Positions 1,771 through 10,702 of a stretch of 64,000 bases of DNA are shown one piece after another. Location of the stretch: assembly GCF_030732065.1 (NCBI RefSeq), contig NZ_JAVBHX010000003.1:186001-250000 (forward strand), read 5' to 3'. The position numbers were made by a program, and so were the translations under genes. The stretch is from Oceanimonas aquatica. GTDB taxonomy: Bacteria; Pseudomonadota; Gammaproteobacteria; Enterobacterales; Aeromonadaceae. Numbering within the stretch: position 1 is the stretch's first letter; every line of letters starts with the position of its first letter. Below the pieces are notes generated by a model. The model ran no database searches. It saw nothing but the letters and a program-made list of their open reading frames with translations, and was not told the DNA's origin.

Positions 1771-2748
1771 TTACTGTTTATCCACGCCGGCAAGAAAGTC
1801 GAGGGGGCTGTGTGTACCGGCAAAGTGCTGACCGAGCACATGGGTGTAAATCTGAGTGGTGCGCACATCGCTGTGCCCAAGCAGCTCCTGTACGGTTCTG
1901 ATATCGCGGCCGCTTTCAAGCAGGTGAGTGGCAAATGAATGGCGAAAGGTATGGCAACTGATGCGCTTGTTGCAGATGCCGGCCTGACGAACTGCCGCTT
2001 TAAGTGCCCTGCGTGGCACCGAGTCATGCAGATGATGGCGGCAAACCACGCCGGTAACGGGATGTTTGCACAGGCTGACGGACGGGAACACAAACATCCA
2101 GGCCGGTTGACGATAGGCATTAGGGTGTTTTTTGCCAATGGCGTAAGGCAGCGATGGGCCAACACCTTTCAGGTTATCTGCCTGCTGAACCGATAAAGCA
2201 CTCTCTATCTGCCGGTGCAGCAAGCCGTGAAGCCGCTCACTTAACATGGTTTTTCTGTCTTTGTTGCCCTTGCCGTTACGCACGGTAACAGAGCCGTCGT
2301 TAAAGCCAATGTCCTGTACTCTGAGCCGCAGGCATTCGGTGATTCTGAGGCCGCTGCCATACAGCAATGAAAAAATCAGTCGGTTGCGTTCATCCAGGTG
2401 TTTGAGGATTAACGCGACTTCAGCCTGAGTAAGCACAACGGGAAGGCGGCGATATTGACTTGCACGATGAAAATCCAGTTCGCCAAGCTCGATATTCAGC
2501 ACCTTGTGATACATAAAAGCCAGGGCATTAAGGGCGGTTTTTTGCGTGTTGACGGCAACATGGCAATCGGCGGCCAGCCAAGTAAGAAAGCGGCGCACCT
2601 CTGGTGCTCCCATGTCGGCCGGGTGGCGCAGCCGATGAAAGCGAATGAATCGCTTGATCCAGTGCAGGTAGGTTTTTTCAGTTCTCAGACTGTAGCCACC
2701 CAGGCGCAGCTCCCGGCGAATGCGATTCAAAAACGGACTGGCAGCCAT
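1771..2748 (-). CDS. intI: Integron integrase (tyrosine recombinase)
   Basis: The 325-residue protein is a tyrosine recombinase with Arg135 (GSGLRITE), His266-x-x-Arg269 (CHTFRHSF), His292 (LGHSD) and nucleophile Tyr301. Between the first Arg and the HxxR box it carries the extra segment LKGVGPSLPYAIGKKHPNAY (residues 193-212), the patch that separates IntI from XerC/D and lets it bind folded single-stranded attC. It catalyses attI x attC and attC x attC exchange of gene cassettes. The ATG at 2748 is chosen over a longer frame because the protein then begins like known IntI (SPFLNRIRRELRLGGYS) and gggaaa lies before it. The gene points away from the cassette array, as in most integrons, and has a LexA-like box upstream. 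Length matches chromosomal IntI. Confidence 0.95.
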   Translation of the reverse strand: MAASPFLNRIRRELRLGGYSLRTEKTYLHWIKRFIRFHRLRHPADMGAPEVRRFLTWLAADCHVAVNTQKTALNALAFMYHKVLNIELGELDFHRASQYRRLPVVLTQAEVALILKHLDERNRLIFSLLYGSGLRITECLRLRVQDIGFNDGSVTVRNGKGNKDRKTMLSERLHGLLHRQIESALSVQQADNLKGVGPSLPYAIGKKHPNAYRQPAWMFVFPSVSLCKHPVTGVVCRHHLHDSVPRRALKAAVRQAGICNKRISCHTFRHSFATHLLESGRDIRTVQELLGHSDVRTTQIYTHVLGQHFAGTHSPLDFLAGVDKQ

Positions 2749-2769
2749 GCTTTTCCCATTCCACGAATG

Positions 2770-2785
2770 CTGGTTATCTATACAG
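2770..2785 (-). promoter_or_regulatory. LexA-like operator at the intI promoter
   Basis: CTGG-N8-ACAG matches the gammaproteobacterial LexA consensus CTGT-N8-ACAG at seven of eight fixed bases. It lies 22-37 bases upstream of the intI start codon and overlaps a possible -10 (TATACT on the minus strand). SOS control of intI through such a box is established for Vibrio and class 1 integrons; here it is inferred from sequence alone. Confidence 0.6.
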
Positions 2786-2952
2786 TATATTGTAAGCCCT
2801 GAGGTTTGCATGCGCGTTATCAACAACAAGTGCTCGTGTGCAACAGGCAAGGGCAGAAAAGACCAGTAGATAGAAGGGCTTGGGTTATGATGATGTAGAT
2901 AACTAGCAAAGCCGTGTAGATATTGAGCATGCTCATTTTGATCACGGAGTGA

Positions 2953-3080: not shown

Positions 3081-3419
3081 ATGAAGCATATTGATTGGGG
3101 TGATTTTCAAAAAGTTGATATCCGCGTTGGAACCATTGTCGAAGTTGAAGACTTTCCAGAGGCTCGCCGACCTGCTTACAAGTTAAAAGTGGATTTTGGA
3201 GAAGAGCTTGGTATCAAAAAATCTAGCGCGCAGATCACTGATTTATACGCCAAAGAAGATTTGTTGGGTAAGCAGGTGCTGGCAGTCGTAAACTTCCCAC
3301 CAAAACAAATTGGCCCCATCATGTCTGAATGTTTGGTCACTGGGTTGCACCGGCCTGATGGTTCAGTTGTGCTTTCAACCGTTGATATGGAATTGCCAAA
3401 TGGAGCTCGGCTGGCATAA
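3081..3419 (+). CDS. CsaA-like tRNA-binding protein (cassette 1)
   Basis: The 112-residue product matches the stand-alone tRNA-binding OB-fold family (CsaA/YgjH): it opens with WGDFQKVDIRVGTIVEVEDF and ends with the typical PNGARLA. Such proteins dimerise and bind tRNA; CsaA has also been described as chaperone-like, and the true role is uncertain. A ribosome binding site (aaggtg) precedes the ATG. The stop codon TAA lies in the first core of the following attC, as is usual for cassettes. It is the first gene after attI, so it should be the best transcribed of the array if Pc is active. Base composition is clearly more AT-rich than the host genes. Confidence 0.85.
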   Translation: MKHIDWGDFQKVDIRVGTIVEVEDFPEARRPAYKLKVDFGEELGIKKSSAQITDLYAKEDLLGKQVLAVVNFPPKQIGPIMSECLVTGLHRPDGSVVLSTVDMELPNGARLA

Positions 3420-3506
3420 CAAGCCGCTCAAATTCGTTCCGGCTGCAACAAAAACGCAGCCTACACCGGACTCGCTAACGCTCGCCGTTTAGCGGGGGTG
3501 TTAGCC
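3415..3506 (+). other. attC site of cassette 1
   Basis: It begins GCATAACAAGCCGCT and ends AGCGGGGGTGTTAGCC, with imperfect inverted repeats (CCGCT against AGCGG) round a central stem region. The crossover falls in GTTAGCC at 3500-3506. Its first core GCATAAC is the exact complement of the cassette start (G)TTATGC at 3051, which closes cassette 1 as the unit 3052-3500. Confidence 0.85.
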
Positions 3507-3540
3507 ACTCTAGTCATTAACGTCATGTAGTTTTAGGAAA

Positions 3541-3807: not shown

Positions 3808-4130
3808 ATAAGCTTTTTGCTAACACGATGGCATCCGACGAAAATTGGCTTAATTTATTTCAAATGACAACGCCATTGCCAAAGAATGCGGAACCAAGAG
3901 ATAAAGCCTATCAGTTATTTCAAACTATTGATGGCGTTGGCGAGGGTTGTTTTAAGCCTCAATTACAGATTATTTACGCATTTGCTCACAAGGAAGCGAA
4001 AGGGACATGGCCTGAGGATGTTTGCGGAAAAAACTTTGGTTCGCTAGTTGGTGGTTTCCCAATAACTAAAATAAGTCCACCATCAATCTTTCTTCGAGAT
4101 CCTGAAGTGAATATCTCAGTGAACCAGTAG
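3804..4130 (+). CDS. Unrecognised 108-residue protein (cassette 2, second gene)
   Basis: No family is recognised. The protein has no obvious membrane segment or catalytic motif. It starts inside the stop codon of the 88-residue gene, which implies coupled translation and a shared role. It ends at TAG 4128-4130, and the same reading frame then stays open, without a further stop, all the way to 4727. The downstream frame at 4254 may therefore be the rest of an interrupted longer protein of about 307 residues, or a separate gene. It lies inside cassette 2, whose ends at 3501 and 4758 are mutually complementary. Confidence 0.55.
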   Translation: MNKLFANTMASDENWLNLFQMTTPLPKNAEPRDKAYQLFQTIDGVGEGCFKPQLQIIYAFAHKEAKGTWPEDVCGKNFGSLVGGFPITKISPPSIFLRDPEVNISVNQ

Positions 4131-4253
4131 CGTAACATATCAGCGCATAAGTCTTTTAAGCTGGTTGGTCCCCAAACGATACTTGCTACTTATGGTAAAG
4201 CTCCAAAACTAAAAGAACAAAAAATTGGTCTCCACCGACTGAGGCGAGTTTCG

Positions 4254-4727
4254 GTGTGGTTAATTAAGGTCCATTGCGCAGTACGTTTAGCGAATACAAT
4301 TACATTTGTAGAACATATACAGGAGATCACAAAAATACAGCAGCTTGATTCAGAGCGTTCTCTTTCGTCATCGCTATTAGGTATAGTACATAACCTTACG
4401 ACAGTTGGCTTTGAGAGTTCAGGTTGGGAAGTAAATAGTCGAGAAGGTATGCTAACTGTGGTCGATAAGTTAAACCGAGATTCTATTGAAGCATTAATTC
4501 ACTCATCCCAGCAACTTATCGAATTGTCGGTTGGTGTGTTGCAAGATGTAGCAACATCATCGAAAATCTCAAAAGTCAGTATCCAGCTTAAATTACCAGA
4601 TGGTAGTTTATTCGGTAAAGCTAGAGTACTTGTCAAAGATGCAGATGCGTTTAGCCTCGGTAAGATAAGTCTCAATGAATATATGGATTGCGTCGAATGG
4701 GTTGTAGAGTCGGAGTCGAGTGGCTAA
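4254..4727 (+). CDS. Unrecognised 157-residue protein (cassette 2, third frame)
   Basis: The product is not recognised. The only usable start I see is GTG 4254, with a weak gaggcgag about 7 bases before it; there is no ATG before residue 60. The frame continues upstream without stop to TAG 4128, so it could be the 3' part of a gene split by a nonsense mutation. The C-terminal half (VSIQLKLPDGSLFGKARVLV and following) looks like compact beta structure. The stop TAA lies within the first attC core GGCTAAC, the normal position for a cassette gene, which favours a coding role for this frame. Confidence 0.5.
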   Translation: MWLIKVHCAVRLANTITFVEHIQEITKIQQLDSERSLSSSLLGIVHNLTTVGFESSGWEVNSREGMLTVVDKLNRDSIEALIHSSQQLIELSVGVLQDVATSSKISKVSIQLKLPDGSLFGKARVLVKDADAFSLGKISLNEYMDCVEWVVESESSG

Positions 4728-4765
4728 CAAACTAATTAATCGTAGAAATTTTAGGGCGTTAGGGC
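4721..4765 (+). other. Short attC site of cassette 2
   Basis: The site is only about 45 bases: TGGCTAAC, a short arm ctaattaat paired with aattttag, then GCGTTAGGGC with the crossover at GTTAGGG 4758-4764. The first core TGGCTAA is the exact complement of TTAGCCA at 3501, so cassette 2 spans 3501-4758 as one unit holding three open frames. Confidence 0.75.
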
Positions 4766-4799
4766 TCTATGGAACAAAGAACAAATTTAGGACTTTATA

Positions 4800-5891
4800 G
4801 TGAAAGAATGGATTAAAAGTAGATTTTTGAAAGTAAACGCCTTTCTCGATAAGAGATACCCAAAGTTTGAGGCGTTATTTACTGATGCTAAAACCGATCA
4901 AGTTGGCTCGTCTCTAAATAAAGTCCTTTTTAAGATCATATCTAGTGCAGTTATTGTCGCTGGATTTTTGCTGGTAATAAACCTGTTACTGATAACTTTT
5001 ACTGATAGAGGTGGAGTGTTTGGCGATTTTTTAGGCGGAGTTCTTAACCCTATTCTTACGTTTTTTACTCTGTTTGGACTAATCGTAACAATTATAATCC
5101 AACGACAAGAGCTTCGCCTCGCTAGGAATGAATACGAAAAAACAGCAGACGCATTAAGTACCTCTGCGATTGAAACTACATTCTTTAATATTATTGATCT
5201 TCACCATAATATTGTTGATAACTTAAAGGTGGATCTTGAGGAGTTAAGTGATAAAGCCGAAGCGCAGAAAGTAATTAAGGGGATATCTTCTTCAATACTA
5301 AAGGCACAAATCGGAGCAAGCTTTGCATCAAAATCTTTAAAAGCTCAGGGCCGTCCCGTTTTCGAAGAAATTCTAAATTATCTTTCTATAGAGGCTAAGT
5401 CGCCAGAGGAATCATTGGAGCGGTATAAGTATATTCAAAACAACCACAACCATATTCTCGGTCATTACTTTAGAAATTTATATCAGGCGCTTAAAGTTAT
5501 CCATAACTACGATGAAGAAAAGCTTCAGCCTGAAGAAAAGAGAAAATATACTAGTATACTAAGAGCTCAGCTATCCACCAAAGAGTTAGCCTTGCTCTTT
5601 ATGAACTGCATTGAGGGCGTGGCTGATAGTGGGCAATTTAAAAACCTATTAATTGAATTTCAAATGCTTGAGCATCTACCTATCTCTGAAATCAATGGAG
5701 GATATTCATTGGCTGGATCTAAAACTCCATTGGCTAGTGATGAAATGTTCCTTCAATATAAACACAAAAAAGATTTAGGCCTTGATCTTCAGAAGTACTA
5801 TGGCGGTGCTTTCGGTCAAAATAGAGGTGTGCCCTATAGTCTACGCCCTAACAAGTCAATCCAGCAGACCGCTGAAGCGGCGGCTGATTGA
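4800..5891 (+). CDS. PutAbiC-type abortive-infection membrane protein (cassette 3)
   Basis: The 363-residue protein matches the putative phage abortive-infection family PutAbiC. Two membrane segments lie at about residues 43-66 and 79-100, the second within GDFLGGVLNPILTFFTLFGL, the family's hallmark. A cytoplasmic helical domain follows with FFNIIDLHHNIV near 127 and NHNHILGHYFRNLYQ near 213, then the RAQLSTKELALLFMNC segment. Members are thought to kill or halt infected cells; the mechanism is unknown. Translation starts at GTG 4800 with agga seven bases upstream. The last dozen or so codons run into the attC hairpin, so the C-terminal tail (QQTAEAAAD) is encoded by attC sequence. AT-rich like the neighbouring cassettes. 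Confidence 0.8.
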   Translation: MKEWIKSRFLKVNAFLDKRYPKFEALFTDAKTDQVGSSLNKVLFKIISSAVIVAGFLLVINLLLITFTDRGGVFGDFLGGVLNPILTFFTLFGLIVTIIIQRQELRLARNEYEKTADALSTSAIETTFFNIIDLHHNIVDNLKVDLEELSDKAEAQKVIKGISSSILKAQIGASFASKSLKAQGRPVFEEILNYLSIEAKSPEESLERYKYIQNNHNHILGHYFRNLYQALKVIHNYDEEKLQPEEKRKYTSILRAQLSTKELALLFMNCIEGVADSGQFKNLLIEFQMLEHLPISEINGGYSLAGSKTPLASDEMFLQYKHKKDLGLDLQKYYGGAFGQNRGVPYSLRPNKSIQQTAEAAAD

Positions 5892-5902
5892 GACGTTAGG
5901 GC
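5845..5902 (+). other. attC site of cassette 3
   Basis: A compact, nearly perfect palindrome: GCCCTAAC and GTTAGGGC as outer cores, with arms TCAATCCAGCAGACCGC and CGGCGGCTGATTGA round a short TGAAG loop. The crossover is at GTTAGGG 5895. The opening core complements the cassette start TTAGGGC at 4759, giving cassette 3 the limits 4759-5895. The PutAbiC stop codon at 5889 is inside it. Confidence 0.9.
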
Positions 5903-5968
5903 GAGTAAGCGCTGTCGAAAGCCGTACAGTTAACCGAAGGATGCAGGGGCACTAATAGCGAGAATGAT

Positions 5969-6982
5969 ATGCCTGATTTAAACTACCAAAAACAAGCGCA
6001 GGAATTCTATGGAAAGGCACCTGTCATAATTATGGGCAGCGGGGCCTCGGCTGCGCACGGCATGTCAGGGATGGGGGCACTTGCAAAGTATCTCGTGGCG
6101 CACACTGACGTTTCCGGTCTGTCAGCTCCTGAACTGGAGGTCTGGGAAAAGTTCTGCCAGGTTTTGGGCGACGGCGTAGACCTAGAGTCTGCCCTACACC
6201 AGGTAGCAGCTTCTGAAGAACTAACGTCCAGAATCGTTAAAGCTACCTGGGCGCTAATTTACTCTGAAGACATAGAAATCTTTCAGAAGAGTCTTCAGGA
6301 TAATGCGATGTTTCCATTGAGTCGCCTTCTTGAGCATATGTTCAGAAGCAGCCTCAAAAGGATAAATATTATCACTACAAATTATGATCGCCTAGCGGAG
6401 TATGCCTGCGATCAGAGGCGCATTCATCATTACACCGGATTTACGCACGGCTTCTTCCGCCAACTCGCGGCCCCTACAGAAATCACCTCTGCTCGCAGGG
6501 TTAATATCTGGAAGGTCCATGGATCTCTAGATTGGTTTCAGACCCCTCTGGAAGATACTGTAGCCCTCTCAAATATCCAAGGGATACCAGATAACTATCA
6601 ACCGCAGATCGTGACCCCTGGCACTCAAAAATATCAAAAAACACATCTGGAGCCGTTCCGCTCCATTATCAATAACGCTGATCTAGCTATCAATGAAGCT
6701 GGTTCTTACCTTTGTATTGGCTACGGTTTTAATGACGAACATATTCAACCGAAGCTGATGGTGAAGTGCCTTAGACAGAAGACACCTGTAACCATTATTA
6801 CTTATGCGCTTTCTGACTCAGCAAAAAAGCTTATTCTTGATGGTAAAGCACAGAACTACCTAGCAATCGAACGGGGTGAAACAGACGATCAATCCATCGT
6901 CTATTCCTCTCTGGATAAGGATCCGCTTAAGGTAGAAATGAATATCTGGAGCCTTGAAGGCTACCTGTCACTAATCATATAG
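5969..6982 (+). CDS. SIR2-domain NADase of the SIR2-HerA defence system (cassette 4)
   Basis: This 337-residue protein has the SIR2-like NAD-binding signature GSGAS at residues 23-27, TTNYDR with Asn138 and Asp140, and KVHGSLDWF with His184, the residues expected for NAD+ binding and hydrolysis. It lacks the zinc-finger cysteines of deacetylase sirtuins, as in defence SIR2 proteins. In characterised SIR2-HerA (Nezha-type) systems the SIR2 subunits assemble with a HerA hexamer and deplete NAD+ on phage infection. The herA gene starts 10 bases downstream, so they form one operon. The pair starts 73 bases after the cassette boundary. A more distant reading as a general metabolic sirtuin is unlikely given the partner. 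Confidence 0.9.
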   Translation: MPDLNYQKQAQEFYGKAPVIIMGSGASAAHGMSGMGALAKYLVAHTDVSGLSAPELEVWEKFCQVLGDGVDLESALHQVAASEELTSRIVKATWALIYSEDIEIFQKSLQDNAMFPLSRLLEHMFRSSLKRINIITTNYDRLAEYACDQRRIHHYTGFTHGFFRQLAAPTEITSARRVNIWKVHGSLDWFQTPLEDTVALSNIQGIPDNYQPQIVTPGTQKYQKTHLEPFRSIINNADLAINEAGSYLCIGYGFNDEHIQPKLMVKCLRQKTPVTIITYALSDSAKKLILDGKAQNYLAIERGETDDQSIVYSSLDKDPLKVEMNIWSLEGYLSLII

Positions 6983-6991
6983 GAAGAAGAC

Positions 6992-8722
6992 ATGCCGATT
7001 TTTGCATTTGAGGATGAAGAAGCGCTTGGAAAGGTTGCATCAGTCGATACTACAAATGTGATCGTAGAGGTGGAGAACATCGACCAGCTCAAAAGGTTGC
7101 AGGTTAACCATCTCGCTGTGCTGCAAAGCAGCAGACTCGGGCAACACCTCATTGGTCTCATTACACAGGTGACCCGCAAACGTGGCATCGAAGACATTAT
7201 CAATGACGGTATCAACGGCCACGCGCCAGAGTTAAATCTGTGCCGTATCGCCCTGATTGGCACCATGCTGGATCGTGACGGGGAAAAGGAAAACGTATTC
7301 CGTCGTACCCTCGAAAGTGTTCCCGAAATTGACGCGAACTGTTTCTCGCTCGAAGGTGATAACCTCACGGGTTTCATGCGTACCCTTTCAAGCGTATCAG
7401 CCGACGGGAATGCTCTGACTCTCGGTAAATACACGCTGGATGAGCATGCTGTTGCCTATCTAAACGGCAACAAATTTTTCCAACGTCACGCCTTTATTGG
7501 TGGCAGTACCGGTTCTGGTAAATCGTGGACGACTGCCAAAATTATCGAGCAGATGGCGGGACTCGCGACCGCTAACGCTATCGTCTTTGACCTCCATGGC
7601 GAATATGCTCCTTTGGTGGGAGAAGGCATTCAACACTTCAAGGTTGCCGGTCCTGCAGACGTTGAAGCCAAACGTACCATTGATGATGATGTGATTTACC
7701 TTCCTTACTGGCTGCTTTCTTATGAAGCACTCGTGTCCATGTTCGTCGATCGTAGTGACCAGAATGCTCCCAATCAGGCCATGATTATGGCGCGCGAAAT
7801 CAACCGAGCGAAGCAAAAGTACTTGGAGGAAAATGGTCAGCAAGAAGTATTGAAGCATTTCACCGTAGATAGCCCAGTTCCGTTTGATTTAGATGTCCTT
7901 ATGGAGCGACTGAATGAGATCAACGTTGAAATGGTTCCTGGAGCGGGTGGCAGAGAGAAACAAGGTGATTTCTTCGGAAAACTCGCCCGCATGATTTCCC
8001 GTCTTGAGAACAAAATCTCCGATAGGCGTCTTGGCTTTATGTTCAATGGCGGTGGCGGCCTGCTCGATTTCACTTGGCTCGAAAAATTCACTACTGCGGT
8101 ACTCGGGAGCACAGGTGAGAATGGCAAGGCCGGGATTAAAATCATTAACTTTTCAGAAGTTCCTTCGGACGTTCTCCCTTTGATTGTATCTCTGGTAGCA
8201 AGGGTTACGTTCTCGATCCAACAATGGACGCCATCGCAGCTACGTCATCCTATTGCGTTGCTGTGTGATGAGGCGCACCTTTACATGCCACAGCGCAACA
8301 TGGCCGATTCTGCCGACGACATCTCGCTTGATATTTTCGAGCGTATCGCGAAGGAAGGCCGTAAATACGGCGTCAGCTTGGTGGTGATAAGTCAACGTCC
8401 GTCCGAAGTAAATAAGACGATGCTTAGCCAGTGCAGCAATTTTGTATCCATGAGGTTAACCAACGCCGAGGATCAGGGGGTTATCAAACGTCTACTTCCA
8501 GATAGTCTTGGCGGGTTTAGCGACATTTTGCCGACACTCGATACTGGTGAAGCACTTGTTGTTGGCGATGCTAGTCTATTACCAAGCAGGATCAGAATTG
8601 ATGAACCTCAGAATAAGCCAAATAGTGGCACGGTTGATTTTTGGGATGAATGGCAAAAACCAGTCAAAGATAAGCGGTTATCAATTGCGGTTGATAACTG
8701 GCGTAAGCAGAACATTCAATAG
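6992..8722 (+). CDS. herA: HerA-like hexameric ATPase of the SIR2-HerA system (cassette 4)
   Basis: The 576-residue protein has an N-terminal HAS-barrel-like region (residues 1-90) and a FtsK/HerA ATPase core with Walker A GSTGSGKSW at 171-179, Walker B IALLCDEAHLYMP near 425 and the GVSLVVISQRPSEVNKT segment near 466. HerA proteins form hexamers that move DNA; in defence loci they scaffold and activate an effector, here SIR2. Good ribosome binding (aggaagaag) precedes the ATG. It is 10 bases behind the SIR2 gene. The archaeal-style partner NurA is absent, so a role in end resection is unlikely. The gene ends 23 bases before the start of an attC. Confidence 0.9.
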   Translation: MPIFAFEDEEALGKVASVDTTNVIVEVENIDQLKRLQVNHLAVLQSSRLGQHLIGLITQVTRKRGIEDIINDGINGHAPELNLCRIALIGTMLDRDGEKENVFRRTLESVPEIDANCFSLEGDNLTGFMRTLSSVSADGNALTLGKYTLDEHAVAYLNGNKFFQRHAFIGGSTGSGKSWTTAKIIEQMAGLATANAIVFDLHGEYAPLVGEGIQHFKVAGPADVEAKRTIDDDVIYLPYWLLSYEALVSMFVDRSDQNAPNQAMIMAREINRAKQKYLEENGQQEVLKHFTVDSPVPFDLDVLMERLNEINVEMVPGAGGREKQGDFFGKLARMISRLENKISDRRLGFMFNGGGGLLDFTWLEKFTTAVLGSTGENGKAGIKIINFSEVPSDVLPLIVSLVARVTFSIQQWTPSQLRHPIALLCDEAHLYMPQRNMADSADDISLDIFERIAKEGRKYGVSLVVISQRPSEVNKTMLSQCSNFVSMRLTNAEDQGVIKRLLPDSLGGFSDILPTLDTGEALVVGDASLLPSRIRIDEPQNKPNSGTVDFWDEWQKPVKDKRLSIAVDNWRKQNIQ

Positions 8723-8745
8723 AATGGAATTTATCGAGCCAATAA

Positions 8746-8771
8746 GCCCTAACAAACGCATGTTGCCGGAC
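8746..8771 (+). other. Left half of the attC after SIR2-HerA, cut by the IS
   Basis: GCCCTAACAAACGCATG begins a typical attC. Its core is the exact complement of TTAGGGC at 5896, the first bases of the SIR2-HerA cassette, so it is that cassette's own attC and the operon is a true cassette of at least 2.87 kb. The element is interrupted by the IS3-family insertion at 8772. Confidence 0.8.
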
Positions 8772-8799
8772 TGTGTAGTTCCCCCGTTTTAGTGGACAC
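8772..8799 (+). repeat. Left terminal inverted repeat of the IS3-family element
   Basis: TGTGTAGTTCCCCCGTTTTA then GTGGACAC; pairs with the right end at 10017-10044. The exact outer end could be two bases further in (8774), because IS3 ends usually begin TG. Confidence 0.75.
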
Positions 8800-8826
8800 C
8801 TCAGTCAAACGAAGACGAGGTGAGAA

Positions 8827-9168
8827 ATGCCAGCGTACAAGAACCAGAAGAAGACTCGGCAGTACACGAATGAGTTCAAGGTCAGAGCTGTTAGGCTGAC
8901 GCACCTGAGCGGAGCGAGTGTGAAGGGAGTGGCGGAGTCTCTGGACATTCATCCCTTCATGTTGTCACGATGGCGTAAAGAGTACCGAGAGGGAAAGATC
9001 GTGGCGGATAAACGCAGGAAAGCTGAGAGTAAGCCGAAGGTCCTGAGCGAAAACGAACGGATCCGAAAGCTGGAAAAGCAGGTTGCTGACCTGAAGGAGG
9101 AAAACGACCTGCTAAAAAAGTGGCAACGGTTTCTCGCGGAGGAACGCAAGCGCGGTTCCAGTTCGTAG
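8827..9168 (+). CDS. IS3-family OrfA (helix-turn-helix DNA-binding subunit)
   Basis: The 113-residue protein has an N-terminal helix-turn-helix of the transposase_8 type (residues about 8-55, with VKGVAESLDIHPFMLSRWRK) and a C-terminal leucine-zipper coiled coil (IRKLEKQVADLKEENDLLKK). OrfA binds the element's ends and multimerises. The A AAA AAG heptamer at 9114-9120 is in the correct phase for a -1 slip into orfB, giving the full OrfAB transposase. A good ribosome binding site (gaggtgag) precedes the ATG. Confidence 0.92.
   Translation: MPAYKNQKKTRQYTNEFKVRAVRLTHLSGASVKGVAESLDIHPFMLSRWRKEYREGKIVADKRRKAESKPKVLSENERIRKLEKQVADLKEENDLLKKWQRFLAEERKRGSSS
9114..9120 (+). promoter_or_regulatory. 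Programmed -1 frameshift site of the IS3 transposase
   Basis: A AAA AAG sits in the orfA zero frame as X XXY YYZ, in the overlap of orfA and orfB. Slippage of one base back joins the two frames. Confidence 0.75.
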
Positions 9169-10007
9169 CTCAGCACCGTGCTCGCTATGGTGTACGTTGT
9201 TTGTGTCGCTTTCTGAAGGTATCTGCCAGTGGCTTTTATGCTTGGCTGCAACGTAAAACGAGCCAGCGTGACCAGGCCAATGCGGAGCTGATAGAGCAAA
9301 TAAAACGGGTTTTCACTGCCAGCAGAGAAACTTATGGAAGTCCGAGGGTGCATCAAGCCCTGAAGCGACAAGGCATTCATGTCGGCAGAAAGCGTGTTGA
9401 GCGGCTGATGCGGGAAGCCGGATTGAAAGCGCGCGTCGCCCGGGTTTATCGCAAGGTGGCTGGCCTGCACCGCTTTTATCAGAAATCGGTAAACCTACGT
9501 AAAGACCAGCCAAAGCCGACTGCTCCCAATCAACATTGGACAGCCGATCTGACCTACATCCGAGTTGGCTCTCGCTGGCTGTACCTTGCCGCAGTCATCG
9601 ACCTGTATTCTCGTCGTGTCGTGGGATGGTTACTGGGTAAGCGTAAAACGGTATCTCTTACGCAAGCATCTCTGCAGATGGCGTTGAGAAACCGCCGGCC
9701 GGAACCTGGTCTGATCTTCCATACGGATCGAGGAGTCGAATATCGTGCTCATGAGTTACAGCGCTTGCTGATACGACACGGGATCAGAGCCAGTACTAAT
9801 CGGCCGGGTATGTGCACTGACAACGCAGAGATGGAATCGTTTTTCCATACCCTGAAGGGTGAGCTGATTAAAGAAAACCGTTTTCATGGAGAGATGCATC
9901 TGCGGGATAAACTGGCCGGATACATCCAGCATTTTTATAATCGATTTCGACTGCACTCAAGTCTGAATTATATGAGTCCAGTCGAATATGAAGCCCTGGT
10001 GGCGTAG
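9120..10007 (+). CDS. IS3-family OrfB (DDE integrase core)
   Basis: The 295-residue frame contains the IS3 HTH_21 region (GSPRVHQALKRQGIHVGRKR near residue 73) and the rve/DDE core: the first Asp in HWTADLTYI, the second in IFHTDRG and the catalytic Glu in DNAEMESFFHTLK. It is in the -1 frame relative to orfA, so the main active product is the OrfAB fusion; a separate OrfB could start at GTG 9120. No internal stop or deletion is seen, so the element could still move. Confidence 0.93.
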   Translation: MATVSRGGTQARFQFVAQHRARYGVRCLCRFLKVSASGFYAWLQRKTSQRDQANAELIEQIKRVFTASRETYGSPRVHQALKRQGIHVGRKRVERLMREAGLKARVARVYRKVAGLHRFYQKSVNLRKDQPKPTAPNQHWTADLTYIRVGSRWLYLAAVIDLYSRRVVGWLLGKRKTVSLTQASLQMALRNRRPEPGLIFHTDRGVEYRAHELQRLLIRHGIRASTNRPGMCTDNAEMESFFHTLKGELIKENRFHGEMHLRDKLAGYIQHFYNRFRLHSSLNYMSPVEYEALVA

Positions 10008-10016
10008 TGGAAGAGC

Positions 10017-10044
10017 GTGTCCGATTTATCGGGGGAAGATCACA
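10017..10044 (-). repeat. Right terminal inverted repeat of the IS3-family element
   Basis: Read on the minus strand it begins TGTGATCTTCCCCCGATAAA then TCGGACAC; pairs with 8772-8799. A similar end recurs at 10544-10570. Confidence 0.75.
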
Positions 10045-10117
10045 ATAACACGTGGGCTCCCGTCACTTCGTTCCGTATTATAGCTACGTGTTACTGTCCC
10101 TTCTTGGGGCGTTAGCC
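10045..10117 (+). other. Right half of an attC, with crossover core
   Basis: The segment ends CTTGGGGCGTTAGCC, with the core GTTAGCC at 10111-10117, and begins the HNH cassette. Its inner arm (TTGGGG) does not complement the left half at 8746-8771 (CGCATG), so the two halves probably came from different attC sites brought together through the IS. Confidence 0.65.
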
Positions 10118-10132
10118 GTATTAAGGATGAGT

Positions 10133-10513
10133 ATGAAACCTGATGATATAGTGGAACAACTTTTAGCTACTGGATTATGGGGAGAACCCGACGCTAGTAT
10201 GGGGTTAGCGGCAGATTTTAGATGCCAATATTGTGGTAAAGATTTACTTGCCTCTGTTGATAATTACAAAGAATGGCAAACAGATCATTTGGTTCCATCA
10301 AGTAGTGGTGGTTTAGATGAAATTAGTAATTATGTTATTTGTTGCAGAACCTGTAACTTTATAAAAGGTCGTTGGAATCCACAAAGCGAGTACGTAGGTG
10401 TAATACCAACAAGAGAACAATTAATTATATCTGCTAAAAAGTATATTTCTGAAAAGCGTCATGAAAATGAAAGCGTAGTTCATGAGCTAAGAAAGATAGT
10501 TGGTCGTATATAA
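10133..10513 (+). CDS. HNH endonuclease (cassette 5)
   Basis: The 126-residue protein has CQYCG near residue 31, TDHLVPSSSGGLDEISNYVI and CRTCNFIKG, that is two zinc-binding CxxC pairs round the DH...N..HNH-type metal finger (here D-H, N and N positions). Such small HNH proteins cut DNA and occur in phages, mobile elements and defence loci; the target is unknown. The ATG at 10133 is chosen because aagga precedes it by five bases; an ATG six bases upstream is in frame but overlaps that site. It begins 21 bases after the cassette boundary. Low GC, unlike the host. A restriction-type or anti-phage nuclease role is an inference from context. Confidence 0.85.
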   Translation: MKPDDIVEQLLATGLWGEPDASMGLAADFRCQYCGKDLLASVDNYKEWQTDHLVPSSSGGLDEISNYVICCRTCNFIKGRWNPQSEYVGVIPTREQLIISAKKYISEKRHENESVVHELRKIVGRI

Positions 10514-10517
10514 ATAA

Positions 10518-10543
10518 TGCTAACAAATTGCTTAAGTGGACGC
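10518..10543 (+). other. Start of the attC after the HNH cassette, truncated
   Basis: TGCTAACAAATTGCTTAAG is a typical attC opening, placed six bases after the HNH stop codon. The second half is missing, replaced by an IS end. It is complementary to the cassette start (TTAGCCG) only in the inner TTAGC, so either it has drifted or the left end belongs to another cassette. Confidence 0.65.
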
Positions 10544-10570
10544 TGGATCTCACCCGCTTTAACGGACACC
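10544..10570 (+). repeat. Solitary IS3-type terminal repeat (IS remnant)
   Basis: TGGATCTCACCCGCTTTAAC then GGACACC resembles the ends of the intact IS at 8772-10044 (shared GATCT, CCCG, CGGACAC). No transposase remains beside it. It marks the decayed right edge of the integron. The rest, 10571-10700, holds no gene I can support. Confidence 0.6.
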
Positions 10571-10702
10571 CCGCGATAACGCAGATAGATGATCCAAGCC
10601 GGCTTACAATAGCGGGCCAACGTATTGTGCCTTGAATAAAGAAATTTTCTATTATTCCGGCGGCAGATGCAATGCCTATGGTCGTCAGCACAGTTATAAA
10701 GA

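What the first reader, a model, noticed from the sequence alone, without database searches (positions are those of the whole stretch)
5896..8771. A complete SIR2-HerA anti-phage system carried as one integron cassette
Both genes, with intact NAD-binding (GSGAS, Asn138, His184) and ATPase motifs, fit between a cassette start TTAGGGC at 5896 and its complement GCCCTAA at 8746. Most cassettes hold one gene of under 1 kb; a two-gene, nearly 2.9 kb defence operon is unusual. It means SIR2-HerA can be mobilised by an integrase and switched by position relative to Pc.
Basis: partly seen in the sequence, partly recalled or inferred. Interest (0 to 1): 0.85.

Follow-up and report, generated by a model that had tools for sequence, protein, structure and literature searches.

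The report
Two-gene SIR2-HerA defence integron cassette
A bacterial anti-virus gene pair (SIR2-HerA) travels between unrelated bacteria as one integron gene cassette, as its exact shared ends in other genomes show, but the copy in this window has lost the end of its recombination site to an inserted mobile element and is probably stuck.

Summary
The window is from a Zobellella-like genome. It has an integron integrase (1771-2850, -) and cassettes running on the + strand. A complete attC (5845-5902) ends the preceding AbiC-like cassette, and the SIR2-HerA cassette starts at 5896. The same cassette lies in other contexts in Zobellella endophytica, a Halomonas sp. and a gammaproteobacterial MAG. 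Shared DNA begins at the attC core (5894/5895), and in each of them the cassette ends in a complete attC (2.92 kb in all). In the window, homology stops at 8773 because an IS3-family element (8774 to about 10042) lies inside the cassette's own attC. The right half of that attC is missing; half of a different attC follows the IS. So the lineage is a true, mobile two-gene defence cassette, but this copy is not complete and should not excise precisely. SIR2 and HerA are intact, match PADLOC models and solved SIR2-HerA complexes, and are not shortened compared with non-cassette relatives. Defence cassettes in integrons are already published, so this is a new member of a known kind. In passing: relatives of this IS sit 18-20 nt inside attC-like sites in one orientation, which suggests attC targeting.

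The parts
1771..2850 (-). Integron integrase intI
   Evidence: TIGR02249 integrase_gron 405 bits, cut-off 265; only hit over the cut-off in this genome
3081..3419 (+). First cassette gene, CsaA-like tRNA-binding protein; attC-like sequence follows at about 3415-3507
   Evidence: NF007493 over cut-off; attC from sequence reading, fold weak (z -0.9)
4723..4766 (+). Short attC-like site GGCTAAC...GTTAGGGC before the AbiC-like cassette
   Evidence: sequence reading; weak fold
4800..5891 (+). AbiC-like gene (putative abortive infection) in the preceding cassette
   Evidence: PF16872 putAbiC 5e-24; PADLOC AbiC 2e-12
5845..5902 (+). Complete attC of the AbiC-like cassette; its R' core G|TTAGGGC marks the left end of the SIR2-HerA cassette
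   Evidence: nine-pair outer stem, bottom-strand z -5.4; homology to other genomes starts here
5896..8773 (+). SIR2-HerA cassette, truncated: 2878 of about 2917 bp
   Evidence: same span in L031, L032, L038; complete cassettes there end at G|TT about 39 bp further
5969..6982 (+). SIR2 NADase-type gene, 337 aa
   Evidence: PADLOC SIR2 3e-142; AlphaFold pLDDT 89.8, the first 39 PDB matches all come from SIR2-HerA studies
6992..8722 (+). HerA ATPase gene, 576 aa
   Evidence: PADLOC HerA 3e-243; DUF87 1.5e-25
8746..8773 (+). Left half of the cassette's own attC (GCCCTAACAAACGCATGTTGCCGGACTG)
   Evidence: matches the first 28 bp of complete attCs in L031, L032, L038, L094
8774..10042 (+). IS3-family insertion sequence (orfA 8827-9168, orfB 9120-10007) inside the attC; no target duplication seen
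   Evidence: HTH_Tnp_1 and rve domains; inverted-repeat ends defined by other copies
10043..10118 (+). Right half of a different attC, ending GTTAGCC
   Evidence: does not match the expected right half; the joined halves do not fold as an attC

Best explanation
A SIR2-HerA anti-phage operon lives as a single integron gene cassette in a chromosomal integron of a Zobellella-like bacterium. Integrase recombination at G|TT of attC sites has moved this cassette between arrays of different gammaproteobacteria (the exact shared ends in unrelated flanks are shown; the integrase as agent is inferred from them). In this genome an IS3-family element entered the cassette's attC, and a deletion, most simply recombination with a second copy of the IS in another attC (inferred), removed the right half of the site, so this copy is now fixed. 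The proteins most likely work as other SIR2-HerA systems do: SIR2 and HerA assemble into a large complex, phage infection triggers NAD+ cleavage, and the cell stops growing or dies before phage release (inferred from family knowledge, not tested).
For: Exact ends shared with L031, L032, L038 and no recognisable homology outside. Complete attC downstream in four other records, alignment scores 130-134 against a random maximum of 41. Different upstream attCs in L032, L038 and L041. IntI over the curated cut-off. L031 lies in an array with about five attC-like sites. Protein identity and fold. The IS inside the attC and mismatched attC halves.
Against: This copy lacks the end of its own attC, so mobility is inferred from relatives. 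No integron intI lies within the fetched flanks of L031, L032 or L038; Z. endophytica has one on another contig, and the Halomonas and the MAG have only sub-threshold matches. The NCBIfam equivalog scores are far below cut-off (SIR2 27.7 of 500, HerA 294.7 of 850), so this is a divergent subtype whose phage activity is untested. Some attC-like sites early in the array fold weakly.
Confidence: 0.88

Rival explanations
1. The pair sits between cassettes by other means (IS or homologous insertion) and is not itself a cassette.
For: The right end in this window is an IS, not an attC. Many relatives are outside integrons.
Against: Three genomes share exactly the interval from the attC core inward and carry a full attC on the right, followed by unrelated sequence.
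Confidence: 0.04
2. The IS simply inserted into the attC, and the cassette can still be excised with a long loop.
For: A half attC with GTTAGCC follows the IS.
Against: The half after the IS does not match the expected sequence of this attC, the hybrid does not form the attC hairpin, and no target-site duplication is seen.
Confidence: 0.05
3. The gene pair serves another role, such as plasmid exclusion or DNA repair, rather than phage defence.
For: HerA families also act in repair; no phage test was done. Relatives occur on plasmids.
Against: The SIR2 fold search returns chains from SIR2-HerA antiphage studies in the first 39 places. PADLOC models match both genes over full length.
Confidence: 0.1

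Closest known systems
SIR2-HerA (Nezha) two-gene defence system, e.g. PDB 8sub, 8j4u, 8wld
   Same: SIR2 with conserved N and H next to a HerA ATPase; predicted SIR2 fold matches.
   Different: Low sequence identity (about 14-19% in the structural alignments), below NCBIfam equivalog cut-offs; carried in an integron cassette.
Defence cassettes of chromosomal and mobile integrons (Darracq 2025, Kieffer 2025, Getz 2025, as cited in PMC12409362 and PMC12444791)
   Same: Anti-phage genes as integrase-mobile cassettes.
   Different: The reported trend is to streamlined, small systems (PMC12409362); here both genes are full size (337 and 576 aa, same as the medians outside cassettes). Whether SIR2-HerA is in those papers' lists could not be checked (full texts not held).
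IS1111-attC insertion sequences (Tetu and Holmes 2008, Post and Hall 2009, as cited in PMC11187229)
   Same: IS inserted at a defined place in attC.
   Different: The element here is IS3-family (DDE, two overlapping ORFs), not IS1111/IS110.

Membership tests
Integron gene cassette | Starts at G|TT of a preceding attC | tested here: met
   attC 5845-5902, homology starts at 5894/5895 in three genomes
Integron gene cassette | Carries its own complete attC at the 3' end | tested here: not met
   In this copy truncated at 8773 by an IS; met in L031, L032, L038, L094. The lineage qualifies; this copy is a broken member.
Integron gene cassette | Occurs as a unit in different contexts | tested here: met
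   different flanks in Zobellella, Halomonas, gamma MAG
Integron gene cassette | Integrase can excise or insert it | not testable with these tools
   needs a recombination assay
Integron | intI of the integron type next to the array | tested here: met
   TIGR02249 405 bits over cut-off 265
SIR2-HerA defence system | SIR2 fold with catalytic N and H | tested here: met
SIR2-HerA defence system | Adjacent HerA ATPase with Walker motifs | tested here: met
NCBIfam equivalogs of SIR2-HerA (NF042942, NF042943, NF042944), a narrower group than the system | Score above the curated cut-off | tested here: not met
   27.7 of 500, 158.4 of 800 and 294.7 of 850 bits: a divergent subtype. PADLOC models match full length.
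SIR2-HerA defence system | Phage-triggered NAD+ loss | not testable with these tools
   experiment needed

The most novel reading that the evidence does not exclude
An IS3-family subgroup recognises attC sites and inserts 18-20 nt after the R'' AAC in one orientation. Copies in neighbouring attCs then act as direct repeats that delete cassettes and fix the survivors; here this froze a mobile SIR2-HerA defence cassette in the chromosome.
Probability: 0.55. Interest if true: 0.6.

Novelty: new member of a known kind. Interest (0 to 1): 0.5.

Why it matters
It shows by sequence that a full-size, two-gene, probably NAD-depleting defence system can circulate as one integron cassette across genera. 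That qualifies the reported trend that integron defence systems are streamlined. Other lineages (Sulfurimonadaceae MAG L056 with attCs on both sides; Rhodocyclus L049 with attC-like sites) suggest more than one capture. It also gives a concrete set of cassettes and attCs for recombination and phage tests.

Tried and rejected
Rfam gave no attC match here. A generic attC scan has many chance hits; a stricter scan finds the 5845 site but misses degenerate ones and has some hits in control loci, so the attC claims rest on homology. The promoter scan found no more than chance (11 against 14.2), so nothing is claimed about Pc or an internal promoter. No phage record carries a relative of SIR2, and the attC pattern is absent from viral contigs; one viral contig has a 76% HerA relative (not followed). 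E. coli genomes hold only weak partial matches. The first alignment request failed because one reference (L040) has a stop. A wider search for the IS by its transposase in 369 genomes of the class gave no further close copies, and plasmids gave none at DNA level. The tree of 57 loci was a quick one; Thauera L081 and Nitrosomonas L033 fall in the same clade as cassette copies without an attC, so loss of attC or escape from arrays is likely.

Full report
Setting. The window is G000:C18:186001-250000; the nearest named relative found is Zobellella endophytica, in the same genus. An integron integrase (TIGR02249, 405 bits, cut-off 265) lies at 1771-2850 on the minus strand. Cassettes follow on the plus strand: a CsaA-like gene, two or more small unknown genes, an AbiC-like gene (PF16872), SIR2-HerA, then an IS and an HNH-endonuclease gene.

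Left end. The sequence GCCCTAAC...GTTAGGGC at 5845-5902 is a complete attC. Its bottom strand folds with a nine-pair outer stem, z = -5.4 against dinucleotide shuffles. By the integron rule (cut at G|TT), the SIR2-HerA cassette starts at T5896.

Independent proof of the ends. Loci with relatives of HerA were fetched and compared with the array. L031 (Z. endophytica), L032 (Halomonas sp.) and L038 (gammaproteobacterial MAG) match the window from 5894/5895 to 8773 at 97%, 98% and 82%, and not outside. In 25-bp bins, identity falls from 13-24 of 25 just inside the core to 4-11 of 25 just outside for L031, L032, L038 and L041. Upstream, L032, L038 and L041 show three different attCs.

Right end. 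In L031, L032, L038 and the Catenovulum plasmid record L094 the HerA stop is followed by a complete attC of about 72 bp (alignment scores 130-134; random maximum 41 in 2000 trials). The complete cassette is 2917 bp in L031 and L032 and 2925 bp in L038 (my arithmetic from the coordinates). In the window the match stops at 8773, 28 bp into this attC. There an IS3-family element begins. After the IS comes half of an attC that does not match the expected sequence, and the joined halves do not fold as an attC. No target duplication is visible. So the window copy has lost about 39 bp of its end, and precise excision is not expected.

Other cassettes of the same system. L041 (Arhodomonas) keeps an upstream attC and the first bases of the same downstream attC, then is interrupted. 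L056 (Sulfurimonadaceae MAG, short contig, binning uncertain) has different attCs on both sides. L049 (Rhodocyclus) and L046 (Shewanella) have attC-like sequences with a degenerate R'' downstream. On a quick tree of 57 loci the eight accepted cassette loci need at least four changes of state; this fits several captures or losses but does not separate them. Most relatives are outside integrons, for example Serratia pADAP and P. aeruginosa pF045_1. Cassette copies are not shorter: 334-337 and 575-577 aa against medians of 337 and 576.

Proteins. SIR2 matches PADLOC SIR2 at 3e-142 and HerA matches PADLOC HerA at 3e-243. G23, G25, N138 and H184 are conserved in all relatives with residues there. 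The AlphaFold model of SIR2 (pLDDT 89.8) finds chains from SIR2-HerA studies in the first 39 places of a PDB fold search. NCBIfam equivalogs are far below cut-off: a divergent subtype. NAD+ depletion and abortive infection are inferred from the family (Tang 2023 and Shen 2023, cited in PMC12409358), not shown.

Comparison with what is known. Papers held here report anti-phage cassettes in V. cholerae, V. parahaemolyticus, mobile integrons and Xanthomonas (PMC12409362, PMC12444791). [quoted passage not shown] A full-size two-gene system of 2.9 kb is at that upper limit. I found no held paper that describes a SIR2-HerA cassette, but the three primary 2025 papers are not held.

IS observation. 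In this genome and its relatives the left end of this IS subgroup is preceded by YAAC 18-20 nt upstream in eight of ten distinct insertions (window, L010, L113, L134, L135/L114, L116, L117, L118), always in the same orientation; the two exceptions (L126, L132) have CATAA at a similar place. A random point has such a motif in a 5-nt window 4.2% of the time (L116 and L118 read by eye). Several flanks are recognisable attC halves. This suggests attC targeting, which I know only for IS1111-type elements and group IIC introns. The number of copies is small and the motif was chosen after seeing the data.

Noticed in passing
window 8774-10042; L010, L113, L114/L135, L116, L117, L118, L134: IS3-family subgroup inserted 18-20 nt after the R'' AAC of attC-like sites in one orientation (8 of 10 insertions; 4.2% expected per site). 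Possible attC-targeting IS3 group.
   Followed up: partly
window 4800-5891: AbiC-like cassette directly before SIR2-HerA: two candidate defence cassettes side by side.
   Followed up: partly
window 10133-10513: HNH-endonuclease gene between two attC halves, with weak similarity to PtuB and Cas9/IscB HNH domains.
   Followed up: no
window 10515-10580: attC-like left half (TGCTAACAAATTGCTTAAG) followed by a GGACACC-like IS end: another possible IS scar in an attC.
   Followed up: no
L094 (Catenovulum plasmid), 3906-6833: SIR2-HerA cassette with complete downstream attC but no attC upstream: looks like a solitary cassette at a non-integron site; the plasmid's best intI match has a stop codon.
   Followed up: partly
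L033 (Nitrosomonas mobilis) and L068, just upstream of SIR2: GTTAGAG core-like sequence near the position of the cassette start although no attC remains downstream: possible relics of former cassettes.
   Followed up: no
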